64,000 nucleotides of DNA from Acidobacteriota bacterium (GTDB lineage Bacteria > Acidobacteriota > Terriglobia > Bryobacterales > Bryobacteraceae). How positions within the stretch are numbered: the stretch's first letter is position 1; every line of letters starts with the position of its first letter. The notes beneath the pieces were generated by a model that saw nothing but the letters and a program-made list of their open reading frames with translations, had not been told where the DNA came from and did no database searches. This document shows, one piece after another, positions 3,678 through 39,274 of the stretch. The stretch spans positions 62,001 to 126,000 of the forward strand of contig JACTMJ010000020.1 of NCBI GenBank assembly GCA_014584705.1, in the 5' to 3' direction. Both the position numbers and the translations under genes were made by a program.

Positions 3678-3752
3678 CGCCCCGGGGGGCGGGCGAGGCT
3701 TCACCGGAAATCGATCGCGAACGCCGCGGATTTCCGGTACATCCACAACGCT

Positions 3753-4133
3753 ATGTTGCCGATTCTCATTGCCGAGGACGACGAACAACTGGGAAGAGCG
3801 CTTGAACTCTACCTGGTCTCACTCGGCTTCGAGGTGTCCCTGCATCGTGCGGCCGCCTCGGCAAAGAAAGCGGTTCTCTCGCATCCCGGGAAATTCGCCT
3901 TTGCCATGGTCGACTATCAACTCGGCGTTGACTGCGGCGTCGACCTCGCAAAGTGGATTCTGGCCAGAGAACCGGAACTCCGGCTCGTGTTTATGAGCGG
4001 CTTCCCTCCTGGCGAGAGTATGGATTTGGCGGCCCTTGGCGAGCGTGCCGTCTTTCTTCAGAAGCCGTTTCACCCCAGGGAAGTGATCACCTGCTTCCGC
4101 TTCCTCCACCCGGTGCTGATGATGAGCATGTAA
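3753..4133 (+). CDS. Single-domain response regulator (CheY-like receiver)
   Basis: A stand-alone receiver domain of 126 residues with no output domain. The acidic pair D9/D10 (IAEDDE), phosphoacceptor D54 (FAMVDYQLG), S82 (VFMSGFP) and K104 (FLQKPF) occupy the canonical receiver positions, so phosphotransfer chemistry looks intact. A cognate histidine kinase is not present in the window. It follows the barrel gene in the same direction at 75 bp and precedes the POTRA gene by 192 bp. Shared transcription is possible but not shown. It probably acts through protein-protein contact, as CheY or Spo0F do; target unknown. Confidence 0.88.
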   Translation: MLPILIAEDDEQLGRALELYLVSLGFEVSLHRAAASAKKAVLSHPGKFAFAMVDYQLGVDCGVDLAKWILAREPELRLVFMSGFPPGESMDLAALGERAVFLQKPFHPREVITCFRFLHPVLMMSM

Positions 4134-4325
4134 GGGCGGGTGGGCCCCATCCGCGTTCTTCCGCTTGCATCACGTTCGGCCTCGCGGTCCCGCGAAACCA
4201 GCGGGGGCGGAAGAAGAATCCGGCTGCGTGGCGCTACCGGAACGAAGCGCGCGCCGCATCGTGAGTGGCTACTGCCCAAAACGGCAACCCGGACGGGGAG
4301 CGAGCCGTACAATTGGTGTATCGCT

Positions 4326-5768: not shown

Positions 5769-5899
5769 ACGCCGAAGGCCGGATTCTCTATTGCGCCCGT
5801 TTCTCCGCTGCATAAGTGCCGCCGCGCCGATGCGGTTGTATTCTGGTTCTTCAGGATGCCTCCGGCCGCATCCGCCCTTCGTCCCGGGAATTGCTAGCC

Positions 5900-8089: not shown

Positions 8090-8531
8090 GCGCCAGCCGC
8101 CGCTGGGTCAACCGGCCCAGATAGCTCTCCGTGGCGTCCGCCTCTTCCTGCCGGTTAACGTCTCTGAGCCATTCGGCGTATCGCTTCTCGCGTAGCCGCG
8201 CCACGAGTTCGTAGTTGCGGCGGGCCTGAAGAAAAGCCCGTTGCTGCTCCGCGATCTTCGCGTGAAGGCTCGTCAGTTGGGCCGCGATCTCGCGAACGGC
8301 TGCCCGGGAACTGGCATGCGCAAGGCGAAACTCAGCTACGCTCTCACTGGAGACCCAGGCGGCGCTTGCGAGTTGATTCCCCGCTTCGTCCATGGACTCC
8401 TCCACGCGCCGCCGTTCCGATTCGAGGTGCGCCCGGTTCGCGATGAGCGCTTCAAGAACCGCCGCCTCCGCCTCCCATTGGCGCTTGCGAAACGCCAGCA
8501 CTTTCTCTAGCGGGAATCGAAACGACTTCAT
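8010..8531 (-). CDS. fliJ: Flagellar export protein FliJ
   Basis: 173 residues, almost entirely charged helix with heptad character (MKSFRFPLEKVLAFRKRQWE at the N-terminus, then long Glu/Arg/Ala coiled-coil segments). This matches FliJ, which binds FliI and FlhA in the flagellar type III export gate. The N-terminal 'FRFPLEKVLAFRK' signature is diagnostic. It lies 3 nt downstream of fliI and is the last gene of the operon. It is about 25 residues longer than usual. The extra Ser/Pro-rich tail (SRVPAPERSSAGTPPPSAEP) is the part encoded inside the 3' end of the convergent M28 gene. Confidence 0.9.
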   Translation of the reverse strand: MKSFRFPLEKVLAFRKRQWEAEAAVLEALIANRAHLESERRRVEESMDEAGNQLASAAWVSSESVAEFRLAHASSRAAVREIAAQLTSLHAKIAEQQRAFLQARRNYELVARLREKRYAEWLRDVNRQEEADATESYLGRLTQRRLALSSRVPAPERSSAGTPPPSAEPADVH

Positions 8532-8534
8532 CGC

Positions 8535-9950
8535 TTATCCTCTTTCGAGCAGCGCGGCGAGCCTCCCGAGGCCGTCCAGCGTCTCCTCGCGCGGGGACGC
8601 TACATCCGGCTCCTGGCACAGGAAGCGCTCGATCTCCGGCTTCACCGCCAGCACGGTGTCGAGCTTTGGATTGGTACCCTTGCTGTAAGCGCCGAGGTTG
8701 ATCAGGTCCTGCGCCTGTTCGTACCGGGAAAGCGATTCCCGCAACGCGCGGGCATGTTGCAATTGTGGACGTTCGCTGATCTGCGAAGAGAGCCGGCTTA
8801 CGGAGCGAAGCACGTCGATGGCCGGATAGTGACCGGCCGACCCAAGGTCGCGCGAAAGCACCACGTGCCCGTCGAGAATCGCCCGCACGGCGTCGCAGAT
8901 GGGTTCATTGAAATCGTCGCCTTCAACCAGGACGGTGAAGAATCCGGTAATGGAACCTCGCGGAAAATTGCCCGCGCGCTCAAACACTTTGGGCAGCAAA
9001 TTGAACACCGATGGGGTGTACCCTTTCTGGCTGGGAGGTTCTCCGGCGGCGAGGCCGATCTCGCGTTGCGCCATCGCGAGGCGGGTCACCGAATCCATCA
9101 CCATCAGCACGTTCGCGCCCTGGTCCCGAAAGTATTCCGCCACCGCCATTGCCACAAAGCAGGCCCGCACGCGGAGCGGCGCGGGGCGGTCGGAAGTCGC
9201 CACTACCACCACGGAGCGCCGCAGGCCGTCGGGGCCAAGGTCGTTCTCGATGAACTCGCGCACCTCCCGGTTTCGTTCCCCAATCAGCGCGATCACGGAG
9301 ACGTCGGCCGCATTGTGCCGCGCCATGGCCCCAAGCAGCGTGCTCTTGCCCACGCCGGATCCGCCGAAGATGCCGATTCGCTGGCCTTGCCCGCAGGGGA
9401 GCAAGCCATCGATCACCCGGATGCCGGTGGCGAGAGGCTTCCGGATGTTTTCCCGGTCAAGCGGGTTCGAGGGTTGGCGGTAGAGGTCGTAAAGCTGGCG
9501 CGGCCCATGGGAAAACCCGGGTGGTGCGCCTTCGCCCCGTTCGTGTGGTGCGTTTTCGGGTTCCCCGGGCGGCGTCACCGGGAAGCCTTCCCCGCCGGGA
9601 ACATCCAGAAAGTTTCCAAAGCCATCGAGAACCCGGCCGAGCAGATGCGGTCCCACTTCAACGCGCGCCGCCTCTGGCCTCGCAACCACGGTGTCTCCCA
9701 GGTGAATGCCGTCCGTCTCCTCCAGCGGGATAGAGAGCACCCGCTGGTCCCGGAAGCCCACCACCTGCACGCGGATGCGGCGTCCGGTGGCGGTCTCCAC
9801 CTCACAGAAATCGCCCAGGGCGGCCATCGGACCAATCGATTCGATCAGCAAGCCCACCGCCTGCGTCACCGTTCCCGTCCAGCGGCTGAAATGGCGGCTG
9901 GCGAGAAAGCTTTGTCCGGCATTCGCTTCAAACAGCTTGGATCGCATCAT
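8535..9950 (-). CDS. fliI: Flagellar export ATPase FliI
   Basis: 471 residues, the usual FliI length. An N-terminal beta-barrel domain (about 20-110) is followed by an F1-beta-like ATPase core with Walker A GGSGVGKST at about 196-204, and VIALIGERNREVREF and VLMVMDSVTRLAMAQREIGL (Walker B region) downstream. A C-terminal domain ends the protein. It powers or chaperones export of flagellar subunits with FliH and FliJ. The start ATG at 9950 overlaps the stop of an upstream mini-ORF by 4 nt (ATGA). That mini-ORF is a duplicated copy of the fliH/fliI junction, so translation coupling that would normally come from fliH now comes from the chimera. Confidence 0.95.
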   Translation of the reverse strand: MMRSKLFEANAGQSFLASRHFSRWTGTVTQAVGLLIESIGPMAALGDFCEVETATGRRIRVQVVGFRDQRVLSIPLEETDGIHLGDTVVARPEAARVEVGPHLLGRVLDGFGNFLDVPGGEGFPVTPPGEPENAPHERGEGAPPGFSHGPRQLYDLYRQPSNPLDRENIRKPLATGIRVIDGLLPCGQGQRIGIFGGSGVGKSTLLGAMARHNAADVSVIALIGERNREVREFIENDLGPDGLRRSVVVVATSDRPAPLRVRACFVAMAVAEYFRDQGANVLMVMDSVTRLAMAQREIGLAAGEPPSQKGYTPSVFNLLPKVFERAGNFPRGSITGFFTVLVEGDDFNEPICDAVRAILDGHVVLSRDLGSAGHYPAIDVLRSVSRLSSQISERPQLQHARALRESLSRYEQAQDLINLGAYSKGTNPKLDTVLAVKPEIERFLCQEPDVASPREETLDGLGRLAALLERG

Positions 9951-10240
9951 GAAGCGCTCCTTCGAAGACGGTCAACCAGCCCGCTCTCAATCTCTTCCAA
10001 CTGCCTGGCGATCGATCCGTCCAGCGTTCCGTAGTCGGTATCAAACAGCAGGGCGCCCCGCGCCAGCGACCCGTCCGCCTCCACGCGAATGGTACGACGA
10101 TCGCCCAGGGCGGCCATCGAACCTATCGATTCGATCAGCAAGCCCACCGCCCGCGTCAGCGTTCCCGTCCAGCGGCTGAACTGGCGGCCGGCGAGAAAGC
10201 TCTGGCCGGCATTCGCTTCAAACAGCCTGGATCGCATCAT
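9947..10240 (-). pseudogene. In-frame FliI(N)-FliH(C) chimeric mini-ORF from junction duplication
   Basis: 97 residues. Residues 1-47 repeat the FliI N-terminus (MMRSRLFEANAGQSFLAGRQ through SIGSMAALGD). Residues 50-97 repeat the FliH C-terminus (TIRVEADGSLARGALLFDTD through ESGLVDRLRRSAS). The join is in frame, and the stop overlaps the fliI ATG by 4 nt. It is best explained as the by-product of a tandem duplication across the fliH/fliI boundary. It may still be translated and could couple ribosomes into fliI. Whether the peptide does anything is unknown: it lacks the FliI ATPase core and the FliH coiled coil, but it carries the FliH C-terminal region that normally binds the FliI N-terminus. 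Confidence 0.85.
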
Positions 10241-10496
10241 GAAGCGCTCCTTCGAAGCCGGTCCACCAACCCGCTCTCAATCTCTTCCAACTGCGTGGCG
10301 ATCGACCCGTCCAGCGTTCCGTAGTCGGTATCGAACAGCAGCGCGCCCCGCGCCAGCGACGCGTCCGCCTCCACGCGAATGTCGATTCGATCAGCAAGCC
10401 CACCGCCTGCGTCACCGTTCCCGTCCAGCGGCTGAACTGGCGGCTCGCCAGGAGGCTCTGGCCGGCATTCGCTTTAAACAGCCTGGACCGCATCAT
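10218..10496 (-). pseudogene. Second fliI(N)/fliH(C) junction copy, out of frame
   Basis: The ATG at 10496 overlaps the true fliH stop (10493) by 4 nt, as a genuine fliI start would. The first 38 residues repeat the FliI N-terminus (MMRSRLFKANAGQSLLASRQ through LLIES). The following fliH-derived segment is then read in the wrong frame (TFAWRRTRRWRGARCC...), because this repeat offset is 256 bp rather than a frame-preserving length. The frame ends at 10218, 23 bp inside the next chimera. Non-functional as a protein fusion; likely a duplication remnant. Confidence 0.8.
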
Positions 10497-11215
10497 GGAG
10501 CGCTCCTTCGAAGCCGGTCCACCAACCCGCTCTCAATTTCTTCCAACTGCGTGGCGATCGACCCGTCCAGCGTTCCGTAGTCGGTATCGAACAGCAGCGC
10601 GCCCCGCGCCAGCGACGCGTCCGCCTCCACGCGAATGACGCGAATGGCCCGTTTGGAAGAGTGCGCGGCAAGCGCTTCCTCCACCGCCCCGCGATCCGCC
10701 GGATGAATGCGGACGCACTGCACCGTCTTTCCGGCGAGCCGTTCCAGCGCGGACCGGGTAAGACCCTGAAGCGCCTCCGGGTCGATCTGGATCTGGCGGT
10801 TGAGAATCTTCTCGGCGATGGCGATCGAGAGTCTGGCTAGATCGGCGTCCGCCTGTTCGAGCAATTCGCGGCGTGCCGCCTCCGCTGCACGAAGCGTCGC
10901 GGCAATCTGGCTCCGGAAACGGTCCATCTCTCCCTGGTTTTCCGCGATCCCTTTTCGGAAACCGGCGTCGAAGCCGGATTGGTACGACGCGCTGATGTTT
11001 GCTTCGGCTTCGGCGCGCGCACGCTGCAACTCGGTCTGGACGGCGGCCAGTTCCCGCGAAAACTCGGCCGGTGGCGCGCTCTCCGTGGGCCGTGCCGGTG
11101 CGGCACCGCGGGTCCCGCCGCCGTCCGATGCTCCGGCCAGCGCCATCCAGCCGGAAGCGTCTCCCGGATGCGCCGTTTCACGCACGATTCCCGCGGGCAA
11201 CAGTCTAGCTGACAT
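10493..11215 (-). CDS. fliH: Flagellar assembly protein FliH
   Basis: 240 residues from the ATG at 11215 (MSARLLPAGIVRETAHPGDA); an in-frame ATG at 11239 exists but lies inside the overlapped chimera. The organisation is that of FliH/V-ATPase subunit E-like proteins: a disordered N-terminus, a long helix with small-residue spacing (about 75-150, ETDLARLSIAIAEKILNR-like), and a C-terminal globular domain (AGKTVQCVRIHPADRGAVEE). FliH binds the FliI N-terminus and regulates its ATPase in the export apparatus. The start overlaps the upstream chimera by 11 nt and the stop overlaps a remnant fliI start by 4 nt. Both ends of this gene are the sites of the junction duplications. Confidence 0.9.
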   Translation of the reverse strand: MSARLLPAGIVRETAHPGDASGWMALAGASDGGGTRGAAPARPTESAPPAEFSRELAAVQTELQRARAEAEANISASYQSGFDAGFRKGIAENQGEMDRFRSQIAATLRAAEAARRELLEQADADLARLSIAIAEKILNRQIQIDPEALQGLTRSALERLAGKTVQCVRIHPADRGAVEEALAAHSSKRAIRVIRVEADASLARGALLFDTDYGTLDGSIATQLEEIESGLVDRLRRSAP

Positions 11216-11591
11216 ACCTATCTCCGCCCGTGCCGCCAAGACCGATCGAGCGCTCCGTCTCCAGTTGCCGGGCCACCTCGATCATCTGGTGCCGCGCCTC
11301 GTCGACGTCGCGGATCTTCACCGGACCCAGCGTACCCATATCCTCGCGCAGCGTAACCGACGCTCCCGCGGGCGCTATCCGGCCGGTAGCGTCGCCCGGA
11401 TGCGCCGCTTTACGCACGATTCCCGCGGGCGGTAGCTTAGCTGACATACTCATCTCCGCCGGCGCCGCCAAGGTTGATCGCACCCTCCGTCTCCAGTTGC
11501 CGCACGACTTCAATAATCTGCTGCTGCGCCTCGTCGACATCGCGGATCTTCACCGGACCCAGCGCATCCATATCCTCGCGCAGCATATCCG
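11137..11591 (-). repeat. Two tandem copies of the fliG 3'-end / fliH 5'-start junction
   Basis: A unit of about 222 bp with a 232-bp offset occurs at about 11137-11359 and 11369-11591. Each copy contains the last ~49 FliG codons and the first ~25-30 FliH codons, with the same 11-nt stop/start overlap. The copies are more diverged from each other than the fliH/fliI copies. For example, FliG DALGPVKIRDVDEAQQQIIE corresponds to GTLGPVKIRDVDEARHQMIE in the extra copy. That suggests an older event. Confidence 0.9.
11205..11447 (-). pseudogene. In-frame FliH(N)-FliG(C) chimeric mini-ORF, 80 residues
   Basis: It starts at ATG 11447 inside the last codons of fliG (11-nt overlap), reads MSAKLPPAGIVRKAAHPGDA as a second FliH N-terminus, then TLREDMGTLGPVKIRDVDEA through GGTGGDRYVS as a second FliG C-terminus. 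It stops at 11205, 11 nt inside fliH. The frame is fully open despite many substitutions relative to the parent copies. That could mean it is translated to keep fliG-fliH coupling, or that it is simply recent. The FliG C-terminal segment here is only the last helices, not the whole FliM/MotA-binding domain. Confidence 0.82.
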
Positions 11592-12519
11592 CCGCTCGCC
11601 CGGACATGACTTTGATGAAGTGCTGCCGGAGCACCTCGCTCGTTCCCTTGAGAGCGACCGTGAGGAGCTTGCGATCCACCCTGGATAGAATCTCGCGGAT
11701 CGCGTTGGCATCGAGCTTGATGATGTCTTCGAAAACAAACATCAGGTGCCGGATGCTCTTGCCCAGCGTCTCGTCGTTGCTCTCGATCTGTTCGAGGATC
11801 TCCTTCGTGGAGTTGGCGTCCAGGCGGTTGAACAATTCCGCGACCGCCTGCACGCCCCCGTAGGATTCCCGGCTGTATTCGCCCAGCTCCTGAATCTTCT
11901 GGCCGATAATGGCGGCGATGCGAGAGACAATCTCGGGCGAAATGCGATCGAGATTGGCCATGCGGGTGGCGATATCGGCATGGCACTCCGGCGGTAGAGA
12001 CGTGAGCAGCGCCGCCGCCTGCGTGGTGTTCAGGTGCGAGAGGATCAGTGCAATCGTCTGCGGATGTTCATTCTGAATGAATTTGGCGAGTTGCTGCGGG
12101 TCCGCTTTCTGCAGCGGATCAAAGGTGGCTGCATCCTCGCCGATCGTCTGCGCCAGTCGATCGAGAATCCGCCGGGCCGGTTCATTCCCGAACGCACCCA
12201 CGAGCATCTTCCGCGCGTAGTCCATGCCGCCCTTCACGACGTACTCGCGGGCCACGGTCATCTGATAGAACTCTTCGAGAATGTCATCTACATTCTGCGA
12301 AGTGATGGTCGACGATCGCGCAATCTCCTTGGAGATGGTTTGCACCTCGTCTTCGCTCAGATGCCGCACGATCTCCGCGCCGGACTTCTCCCCAAGGATC
12401 ACCAGAAGCATCGCGGCTTTGCGCGCGCCGCTAAACTTGTCTGTGCTTCGCTTCTTCGTTCCGGTTTCCGGCGGCGGCAATACCGCCAGTTCCGTGCCGG
12501 TCTCGGGTGCGGCGCTCAT
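11437..12519 (-). CDS. fliG: Flagellar motor switch protein FliG
   Basis: 360 residues from ATG 12519, which overlaps the fliF stop by 4 nt (ATGA); an in-frame ATG at 12540 is less likely. The N-terminal domain (ARKAAMLLVILGEKSGAEIV, about 30-50) binds the FliF tail. The middle domain has the EHPQTIALILSHL signature (EHPQ motif that contacts FliM). The C-terminal domain has the charged torque helix region (DIIKLDANAIREILSRVD). It forms the rotor switch ring with FliM/FliN. The C-terminus (GGAGGDEYVS) is duplicated downstream in the 11205-11447 chimera. Confidence 0.95.
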   Translation of the reverse strand: MSAAPETGTELAVLPPPETGTKKRSTDKFSGARKAAMLLVILGEKSGAEIVRHLSEDEVQTISKEIARSSTITSQNVDDILEEFYQMTVAREYVVKGGMDYARKMLVGAFGNEPARRILDRLAQTIGEDAATFDPLQKADPQQLAKFIQNEHPQTIALILSHLNTTQAAALLTSLPPECHADIATRMANLDRISPEIVSRIAAIIGQKIQELGEYSRESYGGVQAVAELFNRLDANSTKEILEQIESNDETLGKSIRHLMFVFEDIIKLDANAIREILSRVDRKLLTVALKGTSEVLRQHFIKVMSGRAADMLREDMDALGPVKIRDVDEAQQQIIEVVRQLETEGAINLGGAGGDEYVS

Positions 12520-14255
12520 CGGCGGTCCTCCGTCAGCCAACTGCGCAGGATCTGTGCCGCTCCCGCCGGATCTTTGCTCACCGTATCGATCAAGTGGCCG
12601 GTGAGGACCTCGCTGTCGCTTCTCGGCTTCACCCCCTTGAGCGATGCGAGGGCGGCATTCTCCTTCAATTTCAGCCGCTCCTGCTGCTCCTGAATGAAGG
12701 CCTCCAGATTCCCGCTGTTGGCATCAAAACCATCTGGAATTTCAAACTCTCCTCCCGCTCCGCGCGGGACGGCATGCGCCGCCGACGGCGCTCCCAGCGC
12801 AGGTGGCGTGGGCACCGAGGTTACCTTGCGGAGCTTCTTCCGCCTCCGCAACAGCAGGAACCCCGCCGTCAGCAGCAGAAGCAGCACCGCTCCGGCGCCC
12901 GCGCCCCAAACCCAGAGGGGCGTCCCCCGCGGCAGGAAGGAGAGCCACCCCGGCAGGGGAGAATCCGTCGTTGAGCCGGGGGCGGGCGCGACGCCCGGGG
13001 GCGGAGGTTCGGAGATTGTCGCGTCGAAGGGGAGCGCCTCCACTACTAGTTGATCGCCGCGGTCTTCCTGCAGCCCCAGCGCACCTGTGACGAGTTCCCG
13101 GATGCTGTCGATCGTTTGCTGGCTGGGCGCTTCCAGAATGCGCTTGGCATCCTTGCCGGTCCCCTCCCATCGCAGTCTGTGGTCCACCAGTACCGCCACG
13201 GAAACGCGCTTGAGCACGCCGCGCGGCACCACCGTGTTGCGAACGGTACGGCTGGTTTGGAACTGAACGGATTCAGACCGGCGTACTACGCCGCCTGATG
13301 TCGTGCGAGCACGGGTTCCGCTCCTCGGCAGATTGGATGCCGTGCCGGGGACTCCCCCGCTGCGCACACCGTTCGAAACGTCCTCCTGCTTCTGGGTGCT
13401 CGTCATCACCGAGCTTTCCGGATCGAACGTTTCCGCGCTCTCGTTTCCGCTGGTCATGTCCAGATCCGCGGAAACGTTCGCGCGATATCGCCCCGGCCCC
13501 AACAGCGGATCGAGCGTCGAACTGAGCTTCGATTCCAGGTCCGCTTCCACGCGATGGCGATACTGCAGAAGGGCTTCGGGCGGCTCCTGCCCTTCGTCCC
13601 CTTCTTCCTTCCTGGGGCGACTGAGCAGGTTGCCCCGCATATCGATGATCGATACCTGATCCGGCCGCAGCCCCTCCACCGCGCTTGCCACCAGATGCGC
13701 GATGGCCGCCGATTGCTTCGGGTCCATCGTGGCGCCGGGCCGCAGCTTCACCATCACGCTGCCCTTCGCCGGCTCCTTATTCTCGAGGAAGACGGAGTTC
13801 TTCGCGAAGGTGACATGCACCCGTGCCTGCTCAATGGCCTGGATGGTGCGCAGGCTGCGCTCCAGTTCTCCCTCAATCGCGCGCTTGTAGTTGATGTGTT
13901 CGGTGAAATCGGTCGCGCCGAAGTTGGTCTGATCGAAAATCTCAAAACCGATGCGGCCGGTTTGCGGCAGGCCCTGCGCGGCCAGGCTCAGGCGCTGTTC
14001 CGCCACCTGCGCGGACGGTACGGAGATCCGCGTCCCCGCGTCGTTCACGCGCACCGGGATGCCCGCTTCCTTCAGCTTGGCGACGATCTGCCCGGCCTCT
14101 TCGGGATTCAGATTGTCGAACAGCGGCTGAAAATCCCTCTCCGTCTGCCACCGAACGAAGGCGTAGAGCCCCGCCACCAGCACAACCGCGGCAACGCCAA
14201 TCACCAGACGCTGGCGAAGGCTGAGCTTGGTAAAGAGTTGGATCAATTGGGTCAT
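12516..14255 (-). CDS. fliF: Flagellar M-ring protein FliF
   Basis: 579 residues, normal for FliF. An N-terminal membrane helix (RLVIGVAAVVLVAGLYAFV, about 17-35) is followed by the periplasmic ring-building motifs (PLFDNLNPEEAGQIVAKLKE, RISVPSAQVAEQRLSLA, FTEHINYKRAIEGELERSL) and a low-complexity Ser/Thr/Arg loop around 270-330. A second membrane helix (VWGAGAGAVLLLLLTAGFLLL, about 445-465) leads to a cytoplasmic tail ending in LRSWLTEDRR, the FliG-binding end. It forms the MS-ring on which the rotor and export gate assemble. Confidence 0.95.
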   Translation of the reverse strand: MTQLIQLFTKLSLRQRLVIGVAAVVLVAGLYAFVRWQTERDFQPLFDNLNPEEAGQIVAKLKEAGIPVRVNDAGTRISVPSAQVAEQRLSLAAQGLPQTGRIGFEIFDQTNFGATDFTEHINYKRAIEGELERSLRTIQAIEQARVHVTFAKNSVFLENKEPAKGSVMVKLRPGATMDPKQSAAIAHLVASAVEGLRPDQVSIIDMRGNLLSRPRKEEGDEGQEPPEALLQYRHRVEADLESKLSSTLDPLLGPGRYRANVSADLDMTSGNESAETFDPESSVMTSTQKQEDVSNGVRSGGVPGTASNLPRSGTRARTTSGGVVRRSESVQFQTSRTVRNTVVPRGVLKRVSVAVLVDHRLRWEGTGKDAKRILEAPSQQTIDSIRELVTGALGLQEDRGDQLVVEALPFDATISEPPPPGVAPAPGSTTDSPLPGWLSFLPRGTPLWVWGAGAGAVLLLLLTAGFLLLRRRKKLRKVTSVPTPPALGAPSAAHAVPRGAGGEFEIPDGFDANSGNLEAFIQEQQERLKLKENAALASLKGVKPRSDSEVLTGHLIDTVSKDPAGAAQILRSWLTEDRR

Positions 14256-30827: not shown

Positions 30828-30854
30828 TCCCGAGACGCGCTCCCGGAATCGATT

Positions 30855-31215
30855 ACGGCTACTTACGAAAAATTCATGTCCTCCGAACTCCCTCCATCCA
30901 AACCCCTTAGCCAATCGAGGATCCCACCCTCCCGATGAAGGAGTTCGTTTTCGACAAAGCAAAACCGATAATCAAACGTGCGGGAGAATTGTGTTCTCCG
31001 GTCGGCCTGGCTACCCATCCTGGAAATCCCGATCCTACCGCAGCTCTTTGACAACGGAATCAAGCTCTTCGAACGACGGCAACCGCTGCCCTGGAAGGTC
31101 CCGGTTTGTCCGGATCCATCCGGACAAACCGGACATTGTCCGATGGCTTCGACCGTCGCAAGCGGCCCAGCATCAACAACTTACGAGATCTCTGGAGATT
31201 CTTCGGAAGAACCGA
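30855..31215 (+). repeat. Dispersed intergenic repeat, copy A (partner at 36.7-37.0 kb in opposite orientation)
   Basis: It fills about half of the 711-bp gap between the polyferredoxin gene and the secreted protein gene. Blocks shared with copy B: GCTACTT...AAATTCA at 30857-30876, TTAGCC at 30907, GAGTTCGTTTTCG then GCAAAACCGAtAATCAAACG and TGCGGGAGAA at 30941-30988, a less exact stretch to 31075, then a perfect palindrome CCGGTTTGTCCGGAT-CC-ATCCGGACAAACCGG at 31101-31132. No open frame here has protein character. It probably belongs to a REP/MITE-like structured repeat family; I see no transposase. Confidence 0.75.
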
Positions 31216-31474
31216 ATTTTCCACACGCCCTCGCAGCAAGTTGCCATTTGGGAAATCGTCTGCCCCCCCGCCCTGCCACGGCGACCGCATGCAACGGCTT
31301 CGTTTCGCAAAATCCGCGCGCGAGCCACCCCGTCACGCACGGCGTGGCATCGAGGGAAGCCGCGACGGCGTTGACTGGGGGTGCGTGCCCGCTCCTCCAG
31401 CGTGTGGCTGTCCAGGCGGAGACGAACACCGGTTCCGCCGACTTCCGCACAGAGCGGTTCCGAGGCAGCCAAAC

Positions 31475-31517
31475 GCAGCAATGGCGAGGAAGCTTCATGC
31501 TTCCCCGCCATTGCTGC
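31475..31517 (-). terminator. Long hairpin downstream of the 31539-33230 gene
   Basis: Arms GCAGCAATGGCGAGGAAGC (31475-31493) and GCTTCCCCGCCATTGCTGC (31499-31517) pair over 19 bp with one mismatch and a 5-nt loop. The hairpin starts 21 bp past the stop codon of the minus-strand gene. There is no clear U-run, but position and stem length suggest transcription termination or 3'-end protection. Confidence 0.6.
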
Positions 31518-31538
31518 CGCATTGCGTGCGCTCACGCT

Positions 31539-33230
31539 CTACTGATAATTCACGGATTTTGAGTCCACCGCGCTGACGGAGAACACTCCCAGGTCAATGC
31601 CGGGCGCTTCAAAAAAGCCCGGCGTGATGGCGCCGCCCACACTCAGCGTTCCCGAAGGCAGCAATGTGTTTCCGCCATTGTCTGATGCCACCATGGCATT
31701 CAACACATAGGCGGGAACGGTGAAGGCGCCCGCCGCGGGATCCGCATAGCAGAAGAATGCGGAGGTCACCTTCTTCGGTACGGAATAGGAGAGCCCGGTA
31801 ATGACAACCACTCCGGATTGTGCCTGGCCCGCGGTCCAGGTCACGTTCAACGGCTGCGAACGGACGACGTCCACAATCGCGGCCCGATTGCTCCAATCGA
31901 TAAAAGTGGGGACATTCTTCGTGAAGCTGAAAGCGCCCACATCCGCGCCGCCCGCTCCGTTGCCCATCGTATAGACTCCCGGCGTCAGGAAGCTGGAAAG
32001 TGGATTCAGCACGTTCCCCAGCATCCCGAAGTAGCTGCCCACCTCGCCCGTCGTCTTCGGCAAGTCTTTCTGGCCGTTCGGGCCGGCCACCGAGATGGCA
32101 GCGCCTGCATCAAGGTCGCGGATGGTATACGCAGCCATCGGGTCTGGAGTTTCTCCCGCGCTGCCATTGTCAAAATCCACACGATAGTTCGCCACGGCGC
32201 AGCTATTCGCCGAAAGGGACCCCTGCGCCATCGACGAACCGCCAGCCAGCAGACCCAGTCCGTTGAGTTCCACAAAGGCGGCTGCGCCAGACTCCGTGGA
32301 AGTCTCGAAGCCAGCCAACTGCATCCTGGTTCGCATCAGCCCGATGGAGCCTGTCTTTAGATTGCCCTTGGAAATCAACTGGTCAAGCCGGTTCGAATCC
32401 AGCCCGAATGCACCGTCGCATTGAGTGCCGCCATTCTTGATCGCCATCATCGTGAAGTTGCTGGGAATACCGTTCAGCGTTACCACCACCGGAACGAAGC
32501 AGCCCTCAACGTTCTGGGGCACGACGAAATTCACCTGGTCAACGCCTGCGCAGCAGCCGGACCGGCCGGCATACTCGACATTCGCCTGAACACCGCCCAC
32601 GTAAACACGAACCTGGTCTCGAGGCAGCAGATCACCGGGCGCCGGTAGATTGCGGTCGTCGCCATTGAGAGAAGCGCCGAGCCCCGTGGCCCAGAGAATG
32701 GCAACCTGCCCCGGATGCGCCGCCTGATTGATGGCATTGTCGGGCTGGCTCGACGGGCTGATGTAATTCTGGATTACGGATTGCCCGGAGCCGGACGAAT
32801 TGCGTGAGAACACACCCGCCATGCGAGCAACCACCGGGAAAGTGATCGCATTGCTGGCCTGGCCGTTATACGTCAACACCAGCGTAGCCGTCCCAGCGGG
32901 AACGTTCGACGGGAGAATACCGGACACCTGAGAATTCAGTACAAAGATCATCGGGCAATCGAAATTCTGCCCGTTCGCGCTGACGCGAACCGAGACTCCT
33001 CCCAGCGAGGTGGGAAGCGGGAACTGGTTCACGTTCACTGCCGTCGTCGGGCCCAAGTCCACGCCGAAAACCGTGAACAGACTTCCCTGGGCAATCGCCG
33101 CGTTGGGAGAGCCGTCCACGGCAAAGCTGGCGGCGTTCACAATCGATCCCTGCTGCAATTGGGGAGCCGCCGAAGCACCCGCAATCAGCGAAAAAAGGCC
33201 TAAAGCAATCCAAAGAAAATTTCTGCGCAT
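31539..33230 (-). CDS. Secreted protein with Solibacter-type (TIGR03437-like) domain
   Basis: 563 residues from ATG 33230; the frame is open upstream to 33461, but the signal peptide MRRNFLWIALGLFSLIAGAS fixes the start. The first ~260 residues hold the repeated extracellular beta-sandwich typical of many Solibacter secreted proteins: IVNAASFAVDGSPNAAIAQG, SLFTVFGVDLGPT, LPTSLGGVSVRVSANGQNFD, QVSGILPSNVPAGTATLVLT, AILWATGLGASLNGDD and VGGVQANVEYAGRSGCCAGV. The rest is Gly/Asn/Ser-rich with no recognised enzyme motif. Probably surface-exposed; role unknown. It is useful as a lineage marker for the genome. Confidence 0.82.
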   Translation of the reverse strand: MRRNFLWIALGLFSLIAGASAAPQLQQGSIVNAASFAVDGSPNAAIAQGSLFTVFGVDLGPTTAVNVNQFPLPTSLGGVSVRVSANGQNFDCPMIFVLNSQVSGILPSNVPAGTATLVLTYNGQASNAITFPVVARMAGVFSRNSSGSGQSVIQNYISPSSQPDNAINQAAHPGQVAILWATGLGASLNGDDRNLPAPGDLLPRDQVRVYVGGVQANVEYAGRSGCCAGVDQVNFVVPQNVEGCFVPVVVTLNGIPSNFTMMAIKNGGTQCDGAFGLDSNRLDQLISKGNLKTGSIGLMRTRMQLAGFETSTESGAAAFVELNGLGLLAGGSSMAQGSLSANSCAVANYRVDFDNGSAGETPDPMAAYTIRDLDAGAAISVAGPNGQKDLPKTTGEVGSYFGMLGNVLNPLSSFLTPGVYTMGNGAGGADVGAFSFTKNVPTFIDWSNRAAIVDVVRSQPLNVTWTAGQAQSGVVVITGLSYSVPKKVTSAFFCYADPAAGAFTVPAYVLNAMVASDNGGNTLLPSGTLSVGGAITPGFFEAPGIDLGVFSVSAVDSKSVNYQ

Positions 33231-33366
33231 AAATAAAACAAGAGTTCCTCTATTTGAGTAGCGAGAGTCTCTCCCGCTGAGGCTCAGTGTCTCACAGCGG
33301 CCGGCACTTTCCGGAGAAGAAACCGCATCTGCGGCCGGGCAGGCATTGGTGCTACGATAGGCGGCG

Positions 33367-34944
33367 ATGAACCGCCGACGTTTCCTGCAGGCCGCGGTTG
33401 CCGCGCCCGCCGTTGCAGCTTCCATGGGCTCCTGCGCGCTGAACCGGGATCCCCGCCCCAACGTGCTGTTTGTTATTAGCGACGATCAATCGCAACCGCA
33501 TACCAGTGCCTACGGTTCAAAGTTCGTGTCCACCCCCGGCTTCGACCGCATCGCGTCCGAGGGCGTGCTCTTCAAGAACGCGTTTGTGTCGACGCCATCC
33601 TGCTGCCCCTCGCGAGGATCGGTGCTTGCCGGCCTTGATTTCTTCCTGCTCAAGGAAGCCTCGATGAACCACACCGTCTGGCCATTGGGAAAGATCCCCT
33701 TGTATACCGACATGCTCAGCGATTACGGCTACCACGTCGGCTTTACAGGCAAAGGCTGGGGGCCTGGAAACTGGCAGGTTTCCGGGCGCGCGGTCTCCCC
33801 GGCGGGGCGGGAATATAACACCGCGAAAGCGGCCGCTCCCGACCGGGAACTGTCCACCGTCGATTACGCCGGGAACTTCGAGTTGTTTCTGGAATCGAGG
33901 CCGCCAGATACGCCGTTCTGTTTCTGGGTGGGCTTCCAGGAGCCGCACCGCCCGTTCGACAAAGGCGTGGGCGCGCGCAACGGGAAGAACCCCGCCGCCG
34001 TCGAGGTGCCGGGATTTCTTCCGGACCTTCCGGAAGTTCGCGGGGACATCGCCGACTACGCCTATGAAATTGAACATGCCGACAAGCACTTGCAGCGCAT
34101 TCTGGGCCTGCTTGAGCAACGCGGAGAATTGAACAACACGCTGATTATCGCAACGTCGGATAACGGCATGGCATTCCCCCGCGCCAAGGGGAACCTCTAC
34201 GATTACGGCACGCGCATGCCGCTCGCCATCCGCTGGAGCGCGCGCATTCCGGGCGGGCGCGTGGTGGACGATTTCGTCAGTCACCGCGATATCGCCCCCA
34301 CCATCCTTGAAGTCACCGGGTTGCGCGTGCCGGGTTCGATGAGCGGGGAAAGCCTGATGTACGTGCTCGATACGCGGCAGAGCGGCCAAGTGGACCCCAA
34401 GCGCCACTATGCCGTTTTCGGCATCGAGCGCCATTTTCCGGGGAGCCGCCCCAACGGAGCCGGTTACCCCTCCCGCGCCATTCGCACCAGCGAATATCTC
34501 TACATTCGCAATTTCACGCCGGACCGTAATCCGGTGGGCGACATCCCCGGCCCCGTCTGGCCGGCGGACGACCCGGTTGGCGGCTACGGCGATACCGACG
34601 GCGGCCCCTCCAAGACCGCTCTCTACGAGAAGCGCGACTCGTTCCCGATGCTTTTCGACGCCGCTTTCGGCAAGCGGCCCGCGGAGGAGCTGTATCTCAT
34701 CGCGGAGGATCCGTTCCAGCTCAAGAATCTGGCGATGGACCCGCAGTTCAGCGACGCCAAGCGCTCTCTCAGCGCGCAGCTCGACGACTACCTCACCCGC
34801 CACCGGGACCCGCGGTTCCTGCAGGACGGCGCGTTCTTCGACGAGGTCATGCGGCGCTATCCCGTCGAAGGAGCAAATGCTTCTGCCCCCGCCGCGATAT
34901 CGGTGCCGCCCCCGGTGTCAACGGTGCCGTCCGCGCCGCGCTAA
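33367..34944 (+). CDS. Tat-exported sulfatase (heparan N-sulfatase/arylsulfatase type)
   Basis: 525 residues with a twin-arginine start (MNRRRFLQAAVAAPAVAASM). The metal-binding start is NVLFVISDDQS (D39, D40). The formylglycine motif is C79-C80-P81-S82-R83 (STPSCCPSRGSVLAG), a proper C-x-P-S-R. SDNGMAFPRAKGNLYDYGTR gives the second metal Asp/Asn pair. The C-terminal region shares the RSVRT/RAIRTSEYLYIRNF-type substrate subdomain. Likely releases sulfate from a polysaccharide or sulfonated sugar outside the cytoplasm. A formylglycine-generating enzyme is needed but not present in the window. Convergent with a second sulfatase, 11 bp apart. Confidence 0.92.
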   Translation: MNRRRFLQAAVAAPAVAASMGSCALNRDPRPNVLFVISDDQSQPHTSAYGSKFVSTPGFDRIASEGVLFKNAFVSTPSCCPSRGSVLAGLDFFLLKEASMNHTVWPLGKIPLYTDMLSDYGYHVGFTGKGWGPGNWQVSGRAVSPAGREYNTAKAAAPDRELSTVDYAGNFELFLESRPPDTPFCFWVGFQEPHRPFDKGVGARNGKNPAAVEVPGFLPDLPEVRGDIADYAYEIEHADKHLQRILGLLEQRGELNNTLIIATSDNGMAFPRAKGNLYDYGTRMPLAIRWSARIPGGRVVDDFVSHRDIAPTILEVTGLRVPGSMSGESLMYVLDTRQSGQVDPKRHYAVFGIERHFPGSRPNGAGYPSRAIRTSEYLYIRNFTPDRNPVGDIPGPVWPADDPVGGYGDTDGGPSKTALYEKRDSFPMLFDAAFGKRPAEELYLIAEDPFQLKNLAMDPQFSDAKRSLSAQLDDYLTRHRDPRFLQDGAFFDEVMRRYPVEGANASAPAAISVPPPVSTVPSAPR

Positions 34945-34955
34945 GTTGGCCCGCG

Positions 34956-36365
34956 CTACAGCGCCGGGGGCACAATGCCGCGCACGGATGTGGGGTCCCC
35001 CGCGTTGGGCTGCCGCGAGAGCGGCGGCAGATAGTCGTAGCTCGCGTTCATCCAATCACTCAGCAGGTTTCGGTGCCTTAGCACTTCGGCCTCATACTCG
35101 GGGCGATCGATGGCATTGTCGAACTCGTTGGGGTCTTTCCGCAGATCGTAAAACTCCAGCGCCGGCCGGGAGGTTTCGAGCAACCGTGTTTGCTGCTGCG
35201 TCAGGCCCCCGCTCCTCGCCCGACGCCGGATCGCCGCCCAGCTCGGAGAGTCTTCAAGATCCCAGGACGGGCGGTAGCCCAACTCCGGTCGCGCATTGAA
35301 AATGAGCTTGAAGTTGGCGGTGCGCACGGAGCGCATCGGGTCGTAGGTGTCGTGCCAGTTGCGCTCGCCGTAAACCGCGTCGCGGGCCTCGTACGCCTCT
35401 CCGCGCAGCAAAGGCAGAAAGCCGCGGCCCTGCATTTTCGCCGTCGGCCGAATCCCCGCCGCCGCCAGCCACGTGGGCGCCAGGTCCACGTGGCTGATGA
35501 GCTCGTCTCGCACCCCACCAGCGGCGATCTTGCCCGGCCACCATGCAATCAGCGGGACGTGAATCCCCGGATCGTAAAGCGTTCCTTTCGCGCGAGGAAA
35601 GGGAAGGCCATTGTCGCCGGTAACAATCACCAGCGTATTTTCGAGCAGACCGCGTTCGCGCAGAACGCCGAGCAGTTCGCCGCACTCCGTGTCGAAACGG
35701 GAGATCTCGTCGTAGTAGAGCGCCAGATCCTTGCGAACCGCCGGATCGTCGGGCAGATATGGCGGCACGGTCACCTTCGCCGGGTCGTGCGGCGGCGTCA
35801 CCGCGCCGGGCGCATACGGACGGTGCGGGTCCGTGGAGCCAAACTGCAGGAAGAACGGCTTCCCCTTCGGCAGCTTGTCGGCAAACGCGGAGAACGGCGC
35901 TTTGGCATCGCCGTAAAAATCGAGTTTCTTCTCAAAGTTCGCGCCCTGGTGATGCTTACGGAAAATGCCGGTGAAATATCCGCGCTCTTTGAGCAGATCG
36001 AGCACCGTCGTTTCCCATGGCGGCATCGGCGCGTGCAAGCGCGACGTGCCGATCGTGTGCGGTGTGCAGCCGGAGAAGATAGCGGAACGGTTCGGGCTGC
36101 ACTGCGGAGAGGCCACGAACGCATTCGCAAAACGCACGCCTTCGCGAGCCAACTGGTCAATCCGCGGCGTCCGGACGTGCGGATTGCCATAGCAGCCAAG
36201 ATCGGGCACGCTATGGTCGTCCGAAATCAAAAACACGAAATTCGGTAACGCCGCCGGGTTCCCGGAAGAGCCCTGCGCCCCAGCCCCGAGAGATTGAGGA
36301 GCAGCCACGACGCCCGCACCCATGGAACCCGCCAGAAACCGCCTTCGACCGATTGAAGATTGCAT
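34956..36365 (-). CDS. Tat-exported sulfatase, second of a convergent pair
   Basis: 469 residues from ATG 36365, where the twin-arginine signal begins (MQSSIGRRRFLAGSMGAGVV). Metal site NFVFLISDDHSVPDLGCYG (D49, D50). The activation motif reads C89-S90-P91-N92-R93 (ASPQCSPNRSAIFSG): the fourth position is Asn, where most characterised sulfatases have Ser or Ala. GDNGLPFPRAKGTLYDPGIH is the second metal segment. Family resemblance is to heparan-N-sulfatase-like enzymes. Tail-to-tail with the 33367 sulfatase, so the pair may have arisen by duplication with inversion, although their sequences differ widely. Confidence 0.92.
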   Translation of the reverse strand: MQSSIGRRRFLAGSMGAGVVAAPQSLGAGAQGSSGNPAALPNFVFLISDDHSVPDLGCYGNPHVRTPRIDQLAREGVRFANAFVASPQCSPNRSAIFSGCTPHTIGTSRLHAPMPPWETTVLDLLKERGYFTGIFRKHHQGANFEKKLDFYGDAKAPFSAFADKLPKGKPFFLQFGSTDPHRPYAPGAVTPPHDPAKVTVPPYLPDDPAVRKDLALYYDEISRFDTECGELLGVLRERGLLENTLVIVTGDNGLPFPRAKGTLYDPGIHVPLIAWWPGKIAAGGVRDELISHVDLAPTWLAAAGIRPTAKMQGRGFLPLLRGEAYEARDAVYGERNWHDTYDPMRSVRTANFKLIFNARPELGYRPSWDLEDSPSWAAIRRRARSGGLTQQQTRLLETSRPALEFYDLRKDPNEFDNAIDRPEYEAEVLRHRNLLSDWMNASYDYLPPLSRQPNAGDPTSVRGIVPPAL

Positions 36366-36424
36366 CACGCTACCGAGTATATGAACTTCCCGCATTGCCG
36401 CGGAATCGCCCGATGCCGCCAGGC

Positions 36425-36616
36425 TCACTGCGGAGCGGGGACGGAACCATCCGGGAAGTCCAGGAGAGTTCGCATAGCGCCGCCCACGTGAAAGTCGCGC
36501 CAGTCACCGAAATACTGTGCCAACTGAATCTTCTCCACACTCTCGCTTTCACGGGTTGCCCGGCAAGGAAGCGGACGGCGCCGGGGTGTGCGAGCACACT
36601 GCTCAATTGACGCCAT
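36425..36616 (-). other. Doubtful 63-codon open frame
   Basis: A short open frame in the 1.3-kb gap whose end (FGDWRDFHVGGAMRTLLDFP) has better amino-acid composition than the surrounding noncoding frames and could be a remnant of a gene C-terminus. No ribosome site or homologous family is recognised. Left as doubtful rather than called a gene. Confidence 0.2.
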
Positions 36617-36689
36617 GCCGTGAGGATTGAGAAAAATTGCACGATTTGCGCGGGGCGTTCCAAGTTTCCTAAGCCATTTGTCTCCAGTA

Positions 36690-37020
36690 GCCTACAGAGG
36701 TTTCTGACTGCTGGTCGTTGTCCGGATTGTCCGGATGGATCCGGACAATCCGGCCTGTGCTTGAGGCCGGTTTTCCGCGGAACTGCGCGCTGTTCGATGC
36801 GGAGTTTTCCAAAGTTTCGCCTGTCAAGGAACGGTGGAAGGAATGCCTTTCGCGCAGTGGGTTGCCAAACCCACCGGGGAACGCAGTTCTCCCGCACGTT
36901 TGATTGTCGGTTTTGCATTGCCCGAAACGAACTGTCCGGCCAGGGCGGGCGTGCTTCCCGGGCGGCTAATCGCTTCGGTTGGCGGGAGTTAGGGGCGGGT
37001 GAATTTGTTTGAAGTAGCGG
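36690..37020 (-). repeat. Dispersed intergenic repeat, copy B
   Basis: Read on the minus strand from about 37020, this aligns with copy A at 30.86 kb: GCTACTT...CAAATTCA, TTAGCC, CAGTTCGTTTCGG, GCAAAACCGACAATCAAACG then TGCGGGAGAA (36885-36918), a looser middle, then a perfect palindrome CCGGATTGTCCGGAT-GG-ATCCGGACAATCCGG at 36722-36753. Relative to copy A, one base pair in the stem is swapped on both arms (T:A to A:T), so pairing is kept. Orientation is opposite to copy A; the intervening 5.7 kb holds the secreted protein and both sulfatases. Confidence 0.75.
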
Positions 37021-37660
37021 TGACCGTTCCATTGAGCCGCAGGGATTCTCCGCGTTCCTGTCGGCCGGCCGGCGTTTTGGTTTGGCGTTCCTGGAATGCC
37101 GTTGGCGGGAAGGGCGTCGTCTCACTGCATGCGGCCAGTGGGGGACCTTTGGGATGCACGGGCGTTCGAGTGCCCATCCAAATGTGGCCGGGCGTGGCCG
37201 CCGGGAAGTCGCACCGCCAAACGGGGCGGATGCTCCGCGGACTCGCTCGCGCGAGGCGGAGTTGTTGGCGCGGACCCTGGGCTGACGCCCAGGGCTGGGG
37301 TTTGCCGCCCGTTGGGCTTTTTGGGGCGGGGGGTGGAATTGTCCTACGGTCGGAAGGATGTCGTGCCTACTGCAAGACCGGCGGTCAAAATCCTGGCTCT
37401 AACTTCGGACGTCATCGGTGCGGGCCTGCCTGGCTTCGACCAACGCGCTCTCGTCGAGGGGCGGGGCCAAAAATGCATGTGCGGTTTTCGCTGGACCCCA
37501 CCCCAACGCAAGGAGGCGGTGACCAGAAATACAGACCTGTGACAACGATGCCAGAGCATCGGCCCCGACCACGCAGTGTAGGCTGCATTGCTTCGATCTC
37601 AAGACTGCTTCGTTACCGGGACGACAAGGGAGTCCTCCGTCTTCCTTTCACAGAGACGCA
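37021..37660. other. Gap without a supported gene; contains a small GC-rich hairpin
   Basis: 640 bp between repeat copy B and the symporter stop. A long plus-strand open frame crosses it, but its translation is Gly/Arg/Cys-rich and continues antisense into the symporter, so I do not call it. The only structure is CCCTGGGC-TGAC-GCCCAGGG at 37275-37294, resembling the small GC hairpins common in intergenic repeats. Confidence 0.5.
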
Positions 37661-39274
37661 TCATGAATGTCCCCGGAGATCCCACGACTTCGCCTCAATC
37701 TCCTCCGATATGGTTGCGACAGGCAGACTCCACCGCGTCAAGCCCAGCCATTTATCGCTTGGCGGCGATGAAGAGAGCAGACTTGCGAGATAGCCGCATG
37801 CCATCGTAGCCAAGGTTCCCAGGAAACCGAAGTAGAACGTGGAGATTCGTCCCAATTCCATCGCGGCGAGGGCCACGCCGGATGCGCCGATACCGCTGTC
37901 CGAGGGAACCAGCACTCTGAGCAACGGCACACAGATAGTTATGAGAAATCCGATGAGTGCGCCAATCAATGCTCCTCGCCCGTTGGTCCGCCTCGTCAGT
38001 AGACCCAGGAGGAAAACTCCCAAGAGGACGCCGGAGAAGGGATACATCACGATATTCAAAATTTGCAGAATGTTATTCTTCTCCCCCAATTCCTTTACGA
38101 CAAAGCCAAAAACGATGATCGCAACTCCCACGGCGGCGATCAATCGTCTCGCGAGCCGCAGATTCTCCGGTTCGGTTACCGATCGACGATACCAGCATTG
38201 AATAGCGTGAGTATGGATAGCCGCGGTGACTGCGGTAATCCCCGAGGTCAGGCTCGTGAGAACGGCGGATACGACGGCAACGATCATCAGGCCTCGAACT
38301 CCCGCCGGAAGCACATTCATCACAAAGACGGCAAATGCGTCATCGGGCGATCGCATCGCCGCGGCAGCTTCCGGATGGTGATGGAAATACGTAAACATAA
38401 TCAGCCCCAGACAAGGGAAGATCAGGCTTATGGGCTTCAACCAAATGGCATTTCGCCACAAGGCTGCCTTAGCTTCTCGTTCCGATTTCGCGGTGAGATA
38501 TGTCTGCAGTATCACCTGATCCGCTCCCGAACTGGCAAGCATCCCCACGAATCCGAGAAGAATTCCACTTGAGAGGCTGAGTTCCGTTGTGGGATCAAAC
38601 AACGGAGGCATCTCCAACTTGCCGAACGCAAGCCCGGTTGTAATAACACCCTCCAGCCCGCCGCTAAGTTGCACACCCAGCAACACCATAGAGACAATGG
38701 CGAAAGTGAACACAAAGAATTGGATTACGTCGGTCCAGATTACTGCATACATACCCCCTGTGAATGCGAAGAAGGTTCCAAGACCGCCGAGCAAAGCGAT
38801 GACCCATCGCTGTTGTTCCGTACCCCAACCGAGCATTTGCACGGACACCAGAGAAGCGGAGTAAGCCATCGTCGCCATCCACATGATCCTGGCGCCCAGG
38901 AACAGCACGGTTCCCATCGACCTTACCTTCAGATCGAAGCGCTTCTCGAGGTATTCATACGCCGTTGTTATTTTGAGCTTCATGAAGACGGTCGGAAAGA
39001 GCCAGATCACTACCGGCGCGGCGAGAATGATGCCGATGGTTTGCAAGCCGATCCACACGGTCCCGTTTGGCCGGCTCAGCCACCCAGTCACTCCTATCAA
39101 GGTGTTGGTGCTGAAGAGCGCCATATACATGCTCAGAGCGACGGGCCAGCGGCCCATGGATCGTCCGGCGAGGAAGACATCCTCACGATTGTGGATTTTC
39201 GAACTCTGATAACGAGCCACCCAAACCAGCAAAGTCAGGTAACTGGCAATCACTAGCCAATCTATCCAGATCAC
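37661..39274 (-). CDS. Sodium:solute symporter family (SSS) transporter
   Basis: 537 residues with about 13 predicted membrane helices. The N-terminus is IDWLVIASYLTLLVWVARYQ, followed by EDVFLAGRSMGRWPVALSMY, the family block after helix 1. FLGARIMWMATMAYSASLVS and AFTGGMYAVIWTDVIQFFVF are also typical of SGLT/SSS carriers. It probably imports a sugar or sugar acid with Na+. It is the last gene of the minus arm of the catabolic island (aldolase, TonB receptor, propeller protein, symporter), 65 bp after the propeller gene. Substrate cannot be read from sequence; some SSS members carry sialic acid or galactose. Confidence 0.93.
   Translation of the reverse strand: MIWIDWLVIASYLTLLVWVARYQSSKIHNREDVFLAGRSMGRWPVALSMYMALFSTNTLIGVTGWLSRPNGTVWIGLQTIGIILAAPVVIWLFPTVFMKLKITTAYEYLEKRFDLKVRSMGTVLFLGARIMWMATMAYSASLVSVQMLGWGTEQQRWVIALLGGLGTFFAFTGGMYAVIWTDVIQFFVFTFAIVSMVLLGVQLSGGLEGVITTGLAFGKLEMPPLFDPTTELSLSSGILLGFVGMLASSGADQVILQTYLTAKSEREAKAALWRNAIWLKPISLIFPCLGLIMFTYFHHHPEAAAAMRSPDDAFAVFVMNVLPAGVRGLMIVAVVSAVLTSLTSGITAVTAAIHTHAIQCWYRRSVTEPENLRLARRLIAAVGVAIIVFGFVVKELGEKNNILQILNIVMYPFSGVLLGVFLLGLLTRRTNGRGALIGALIGFLITICVPLLRVLVPSDSGIGASGVALAAMELGRISTFYFGFLGTLATMACGYLASLLSSSPPSDKWLGLTRWSLPVATISEEIEAKSWDLRGHS

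What the first reader, a model, noticed from the sequence alone, without database searches (positions are those of the whole stretch)
30855..37020. Inverted pair of a structured intergenic repeat with a compensatory palindrome change
Copies at 30.86-31.2 kb and 36.69-37.02 kb (opposite orientation) share several blocks over about 330 bp and both carry a 15-bp-arm palindrome with a 2-nt centre. The stem differs at one base pair (CCGGT... versus CCGGA...) and the opposite arm has the matching change, so the fold is kept while the primary sequence drifts. That suggests the DNA or RNA structure is maintained. The pair also flanks a 5.7-kb module with two sulfatases and could recombine to invert it.
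Basis: seen in the sequence. Interest (0 to 1): 0.62.

Follow-up and report, generated by a model that had tools for sequence, protein, structure and literature searches.

The report
Genus-specific intergenic repeat at rearrangement breakpoints
Two opposite-facing copies of a non-coding DNA repeat turn out to belong to a multi-copy family, found only in one genus of Acidobacteriota, that sits where chromosomes of related species have been cut and re-joined, and what moves it is unknown.

Summary
Copies W1 (about 30841-31221, +) and W2 (about 36602-37678, -) are two members of a dispersed family with about 16 recognisable copies in this Bryobacterales genome. Among 200 genomes of the family, strong matches occur only in the same genus. 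W2 is longer than reported (about 1.07 kb): a 360-bp block with a fixed 5' terminus, an Acido-Lenti-1-like hairpin, a covarying three-hairpin block (S), then the shared core and palindrome. The core is held by sequence: 24 copies show no two-sided pair changes, and outside the palindrome it folds no better than shuffles. In the palindrome only one pair covaries (T-A/A-T, shuffle p=0.003). The same change can arise by hairpin-templated repair, so a maintained RNA fold is not shown. Inversion of the sulfatase module is not supported: the longest identical stretch is 22 bp. In a congener the three genes are collinear but both flanks differ. In every informative case, collinearity with congeners stops at the element, and W1 marks one end of a 49.7-kb segment absent from two congeners. 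Best reading: a composite, non-autonomous, recombination-associated repeat, mobiliser unknown. An rRNA-leader-like boxA in the core leaves a transcribed non-coding RNA possible.

The parts
30841..31221 (+). Copy W1 of the repeat (5'-truncated relative to W2: no S block or upstream block)
   Evidence: Alignments to W2 and six other genomic copies; homology starts 14 nt after the stop of the Fer4 gene
30941..31067 (+). W1 core, fixed-length segment GTTCGTTT... to boxA-like site
   Evidence: Covariance model R1, 105.6 bits; length 126-128 nt in 24 copies
31042..31061 (+). boxA-like motif AGCTCTTTGACAACGGAATC
   Evidence: Conserved in nearly all copies; the genome's own 16S rRNA leader has GATCTTTGACAAT 264 nt before 16S
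31101..31132 (.). W1 palindrome, 15-bp arms with CC centre, followed by a second CCGGACA
31157..31185 (+). Weak inverted repeat CGCAAG ... CTTACG in the tail (GTAAN-N17-NTTAC in other copies)
   Evidence: Seen by eye in alignments; not tested statistically
36602..37678 (-). Copy W2, full composite unit (1.07 kb)
   Evidence: 69-74% identity to copies on contigs C5 and C7; 5' terminus shared with other copies
37341..37678 (-). Upstream block U with fixed 5' terminus (CGGGGACATTCATGAT...)
   Evidence: Sequence upstream differs in every copy, sequence downstream is homologous; terminus found at 11 places in the genome
37275..37318 (+). Acido-Lenti-1-like hairpin (RF01687), on the strand opposite to W2
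   Evidence: cmscan 35.2 bits, just under the gathering score of 37; other copies reach 38.0, 40.8 and 39.1 bits
37187..37272 (-). S block: three conserved hairpins, also present alone elsewhere in the genome
   Evidence: HMM hit; covariation 0/500 shuffles; model R2 finds at least 22 copies in this genome
36808..36934 (-). W2 core
   Evidence: Covariance model R1, 110.6 bits
36722..36753 (.). W2 palindrome, 15-bp arms with 2-nt centre
31435..36393 (.). Three-gene module (unknown 640-aa protein and two sulfatases) between the copies
   Evidence: 77% identical and collinear over 5016 bp in congener G003 contig C67, without W1, W2 or the same flanks; Pfam

Best explanation
W1 and W2 are members of a genus-restricted, composite, non-coding dispersed repeat that multiplies within each lineage and lies at junctions where the chromosome has been rearranged. 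Shown: many copies, a modular build, a fixed 5' terminus of the upstream block, grouping of copies by genome, and loss of collinearity with congeners at the element. Inferred: the unit is non-autonomous and is spread, or used as a joint, by a recombinase or transposase encoded elsewhere. The palindrome with its 9-bp direct repeats (CCGGACAA) would be a protein recognition or hairpin-forming site in DNA, kept symmetrical by selection or by hairpin-templated repair. The pair does not act as an inversion switch for the sulfatase module.
For: About 16 dispersed copies in G000. R1 gives 10, 17 and 13 hits in three genomes of the genus and only marginal hits elsewhere among 200 genomes. Copies group by genome on a tree (5 label changes, shuffled mean 11.1, none of 2000 as low). 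The 5' terminus of block U is identical at several sites with unrelated upstream DNA. Collinearity with congeners stops on the element side in all ten informative element sites, against 2 breaks and 21 intact junctions elsewhere in the same alignments (hand tally; Fisher p=7e-7). W1 lies at the left edge of a 49.7-kb segment absent in two congeners, where the Fer4 gene is followed directly by priA. Two convergent elements share one palindrome in G003 (L033).
Against: No terminal inverted repeats or target-site duplications were found. No clean empty site was found for a single copy. No transposase carries these ends. The junction control is biased: alignments start at conserved flank genes, and element-bearing gaps are long. 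Long non-coding gaps may simply tolerate both rearrangement and repeats. The fixed spacing and motif order inside the core look like constraint, which a decaying mobile element would not need.
Confidence: 0.5

Rival explanations
1. A multi-copy non-coding RNA gene family: a promoter-like site (GATAAT/TAGAAT), a boxA antitermination site about 75 nt downstream, the palindrome as a strong hairpin, and an end near TTTTTCA. Copies would be kept because the RNA is used, and boxA would let RNA polymerase pass Rho-dependent termination.
For: Near-invariant AATC and TCTTTGNCA motifs at fixed spacing (126-128 nt segment). The genome's own rRNA leader has the same boxA-like string. boxA recruits NusB/NusE and blocks Rho-dependent termination in long untranslated RNA (PMC4807359). 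No fixed relation to neighbouring genes, as expected of an independent transcript.
Against: No sigma-70-type promoter or intrinsic terminator match in the W1 gap, and only an unrelated promoter-like match in W2. No covariation in the core. Folding of W1 no better than shuffles outside the palindrome. A short motif match is weak evidence.
Confidence: 0.2
2. A protein-binding DNA site family (operator, nucleoid-associated or chromosome-organising site) centred on TTGTCCGGATNNATCCGGACAA, with the conserved core as further binding sites.
For: Inner arms nearly invariant in most copies. 9-bp direct repeats. Core-to-palindrome spacing is 44-46 nt in most copies, with outliers of 55, 66 and 67, close to whole helical turns.
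Against: Copies are few, sit in no fixed place relative to genes and differ between species at the same sites. The spacing argument rests on a few outliers.
Confidence: 0.17
3. REP/BIME-type repeats moved by a RAYT (Y1) transposase.
For: Four Y1 genes in the genome. Blocks U and S lie near RAYT pieces on C17 and C21, and U abuts a RAYT C-terminus remnant at C28.
Against: Flanks of the Y1 genes carry other hairpins (GGCCCCCGGCTTTGCCGGGG) and no CCGGACAA, S, U terminus or core. The element is far longer than a REP.
Confidence: 0.08
4. An invertible module: W1 and W2 recombine and flip the two-sulfatase segment.
For: Opposite orientation flanking 5.5 kb.
Against: Longest shared identity 22 bp, 72% overall. 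In G003 the module is collinear and both outer flanks are unrelated, so relocation, not inversion, is what is seen.
Confidence: 0.03

Closest known systems
Bacterial interspersed mosaic elements / REP sequences with RAYT transposases (PMC2817692, PMC3733652)
   Same: Intergenic, dispersed, palindromic, mosaic of smaller modules, in a genome that has RAYT genes
   Different: Unit about 0.35-1.1 kb, not 20-40 bp REPs; about 16 core copies; palindrome not found beside any of the four RAYT genes
MITEs / small mobile intergenic sequences (RU elements; PMC10969869, PMC2229807)
   Same: Non-coding, non-autonomous looking, expands within a lineage
   Different: No terminal inverted repeats or target duplications found; internal conserved motifs at fixed spacing
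Acido-Lenti-1 RNA (RF01687; PMC2864571)
   Same: A hairpin at or just below its gathering score is one module of W2 and of other long copies
   Different: Only 46 nt; it is on the opposite strand and does not include S, core or palindrome
rRNA leader / boxA antitermination regions
   Same: TCTTTGACAA string as in this genome's 16S leader
   Different: No rRNA follows; transcription unproven

Membership tests
REP/BIME (RAYT-mobilised) | Palindromic unit found flanking a RAYT gene | tested here: not met
   None of the four Y1 loci has the palindrome, S or core within about 1.5 kb
REP/BIME (RAYT-mobilised) | Short (20-40 bp) palindromes in high copy (over 100) | tested here: not met
   10 places match the palindrome within 3 mismatches; about 16 core copies
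MITE | Terminal inverted repeats | tested here: not met
   Block U has a fixed 5' end, but no matching inverted end was seen at the 3' side
MITE | Target-site duplication / empty sites | tested here: inconclusive
   Flanks in congeners are rearranged, so no clean empty site was available
Acido-Lenti-1 RNA | cmscan score at or above gathering | tested here: inconclusive
   W2 35.2 bits against 37; copies on C7, C17, C21 score 38.0, 40.8, 39.1
boxA-bearing RNA | boxA string matching the genome's rRNA leader | tested here: met
   TCTTTGACAA in W1, variants of it in most copies, and in the 16S leader; W2 itself has TCCTTGACAG
boxA-bearing RNA | Transcription through the element | not testable with these tools
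   No expression data
Structured RNA (core) | Compensatory changes in a predicted fold | tested here: not met
   0 two-sided changes, 454/500 shuffles reach the observed score
Structured RNA (S block) | Compensatory changes in a predicted fold | tested here: met
   4 pairs and 10 cells with two-sided changes, 0/500 shuffles; slid controls pair in at most 50% of cells against 96.5%

The most novel reading that the evidence does not exclude
The family is a new kind of genus-specific, boxA-bearing non-coding RNA element that is both transcribed and mobile, whose hairpin modules (S and the CCGGACAA palindrome) are used by an unidentified recombinase, so that its copies define where chromosomes of the genus rearrange.
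Probability: 0.12. Interest if true: 0.72.

Novelty: new variant of a known kind. Interest (0 to 1): 0.42.

Why it matters
It gives a defined, searchable repeat that coincides with synteny breakpoints and assembly breaks in an uncultured Acidobacteriota genus, and a covarying hairpin block (S) with no Rfam match. If the association with breakpoints survives a fair control, it offers a handle on how these genomes are rearranged.

Tried and rejected
1) RNA fold of the core: rejected by covariation counts and shuffles. 2) RAYT as mobiliser of the palindrome: no shared motifs at the four Y1 loci. 3) Cis-regulation of neighbours: copies lie between convergent, divergent and codirectional genes without a pattern and next to unrelated families. 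4) Rfam families: nothing but Acido-Lenti-1 in the two gaps; other hits looked like chance. 5) rRNA operons as the cause of contig ends near copies: the only 16S gene found is on C2. 6) A second element copy at the right end of the 49.7-kb segment: none. 7) Integron-like arrays: S copies sit in same-strand pairs 0.2-3.6 kb apart, but the gaps hold few credible ORFs and no attC-type ends were recognised.

Full report
Observation. The two copies are present as described. Reading W1 on + and W2 on -, they share a 76-nt block and a 35-nt block, and each has a perfect palindrome of 15-bp arms around two bases. Neither the palindrome nor the 30-mer core is expected by chance. The outer arm differs by T-A against A-T with the matching change on the other arm.

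Family. A blast of the whole genome (G000; the window is contig C8:62001-126000) gave further full copies on contigs C5, C7, C10, C12, C13 and C16. Iterated HMM searches added diverged or partial ones, about 16 places in all. The order of blocks is constant: GGTCACCG...; CAACTC...CTTA; GTTCGTTTCGG...AATCAAACGTGCGGGAGAACT; TGCTCTTTGACAA..GAATC; the palindrome followed by a second CCGGACAA; a weak inverted repeat; and a T-rich stretch. The segment from GTTCG to the TCTTTGACAA motif has nearly fixed length, and the palindrome follows 44-46 nt later in most copies, with 55, 66 and 67 as outliers.

W2 is larger than reported. Homology with copies on C5, C7, C10 and C13 continues upstream for another 330 nt through a block S of about 85 nt and an Acido-Lenti-1-like hairpin on the opposite strand. 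It then runs into a block U of about 360 bp that starts at the same base in all copies compared, while the DNA before it differs each time. The U terminus occurs at 11 places in G000. S also occurs alone; at least 22 copies were found (the number scored was capped at 22). W1 lacks U and S; its homology begins 14 nt after the stop codon of the Fer4 gene.

Distribution. With covariance models, core R1 gives strong hits only in G000 and two congeners (10, 17 and 13), with single marginal hits in G001 and one other genome. S (R2) gives strong hits in all five genomes of the genus and marginal hits in two others. Both searches covered 200 genomes of the family in 76 genera. Copies of the core group by genome: 5 label changes on the tree against a shuffled mean of 11.1, and none of 2000 shuffles as low. 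This points to multiplication or homogenisation within each lineage.

Structure. S is a genuine covarying structure: 96.5% of cells paired, four pairs with changes on both sides, 0 of 500 shuffles as high. In the core helix chosen by RNAalifold there is no two-sided change, and the W1 core folds worse than the mean of its shuffles. In the palindrome, position 10 covaries (22 of 35 paired, null 14.9, p=0.003) while positions 11-15 do not reach significance. The 3' side carries two direct CCGGACAA repeats, and in different copies the 5' arm matches either the proximal or the distal one. Template switching between imperfect inverted repeats makes arms match without selection on a fold (PMC7202029, PMC8604942), so the compensated change is not by itself evidence of a used RNA or DNA hairpin.

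Synteny. In congeners L112 and L113 the Fer4 gene is followed directly by priA. In G000 priA lies 49.7 kb further along the same contig, and W1 sits at the left joint; there is no copy at the right joint. Which state is ancestral is not known. The three-gene sulfatase module 31435-36393 is collinear in G003 (77%, 5016 bp), but neither W1, W2 nor the outer flanks are there. For flank genes of the other copies, collinearity with congeners holds away from the element and stops on its side; one site (C20) keeps a diverged copy in G003. A hand tally gives 10 of 10 element gaps broken against 2 of 23 other junctions (Fisher p=7e-7). The control is biased, because alignments were seeded on conserved flank genes and element gaps are long, so I treat the association as likely rather than proven.

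Transcription. The motif TCTTTGACAA matches the boxA-like site in this genome's own 16S leader. Together with a GATAAT/TAGAAT site about 75 nt upstream it suggests, but does not show, a transcript reading in the direction of W1. Consensus scans found no sigma-70-type promoter in the W1 gap and none in the core of W2.

Mobiliser. Four Y1 (RAYT) genes exist, but their flanks carry other hairpins and none of the modules described here. RAYT pieces do lie near U and S on C17 and C21, and U abuts one at C28, which is a lead only.

Conclusion. The best-supported reading is a composite, non-autonomous, genus-restricted intergenic repeat associated with rearrangement joints. A boxA-bearing RNA gene family and a protein-binding site family remain open. 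Inversion of the sulfatase module is unlikely, with 22 bp as the longest identity.

Noticed in passing
L068 (G000 C24:296000-307800), 7058-10150 and 11435-11801: A Cas9 gene (1030 aa, PADLOC and Pfam hits) and a tandem-repeat stretch of about 66-bp period at the contig end, probably a CRISPR array, lie beside a partial copy of the repeat (boxA to palindrome only).
   Followed up: partly
L266 (G000 C21:1-15000), about 3300-13700: A 10-kb stretch with small toxin-antitoxin-like genes, a tyrosine recombinase fragment, two broken RAYT copies and several U/S blocks: a plasticity zone. Gene names are by eye from the translations, except RAYT (tblastn).
   Followed up: partly
window 31475-31517: Near-perfect hairpin (19-bp arms, 95%, 5-nt loop) just beyond the 3' end of the 640-aa gene; possibly a terminator.
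   Followed up: no
window 31539-33461 (-): 640-aa protein with no Pfam or PADLOC match, kept with two sulfatases as a collinear trio in congener G003.
   Followed up: no
L072 (G000 C20:1-10500), 1227-1301: Group II intron domain (RF00029, 55.9 bits) near an S/core copy; block U starts at the contig end.
   Followed up: no
L114 11000-11800: In a related genome the same Fer4 gene is followed by a different repeat array: 9-bp TCCGACNNN direct repeats alternating with TTACGAAACGAAC.
   Followed up: no
L283 and L285 (G000 C27:48781, C6:105933): The 11-bp terminus TTTCGGTGACA also precedes other sequence types (TTTCGGTGACAGGCGCGGC...), sometimes several in tandem, each leading to an S-like hairpin.
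   Followed up: no
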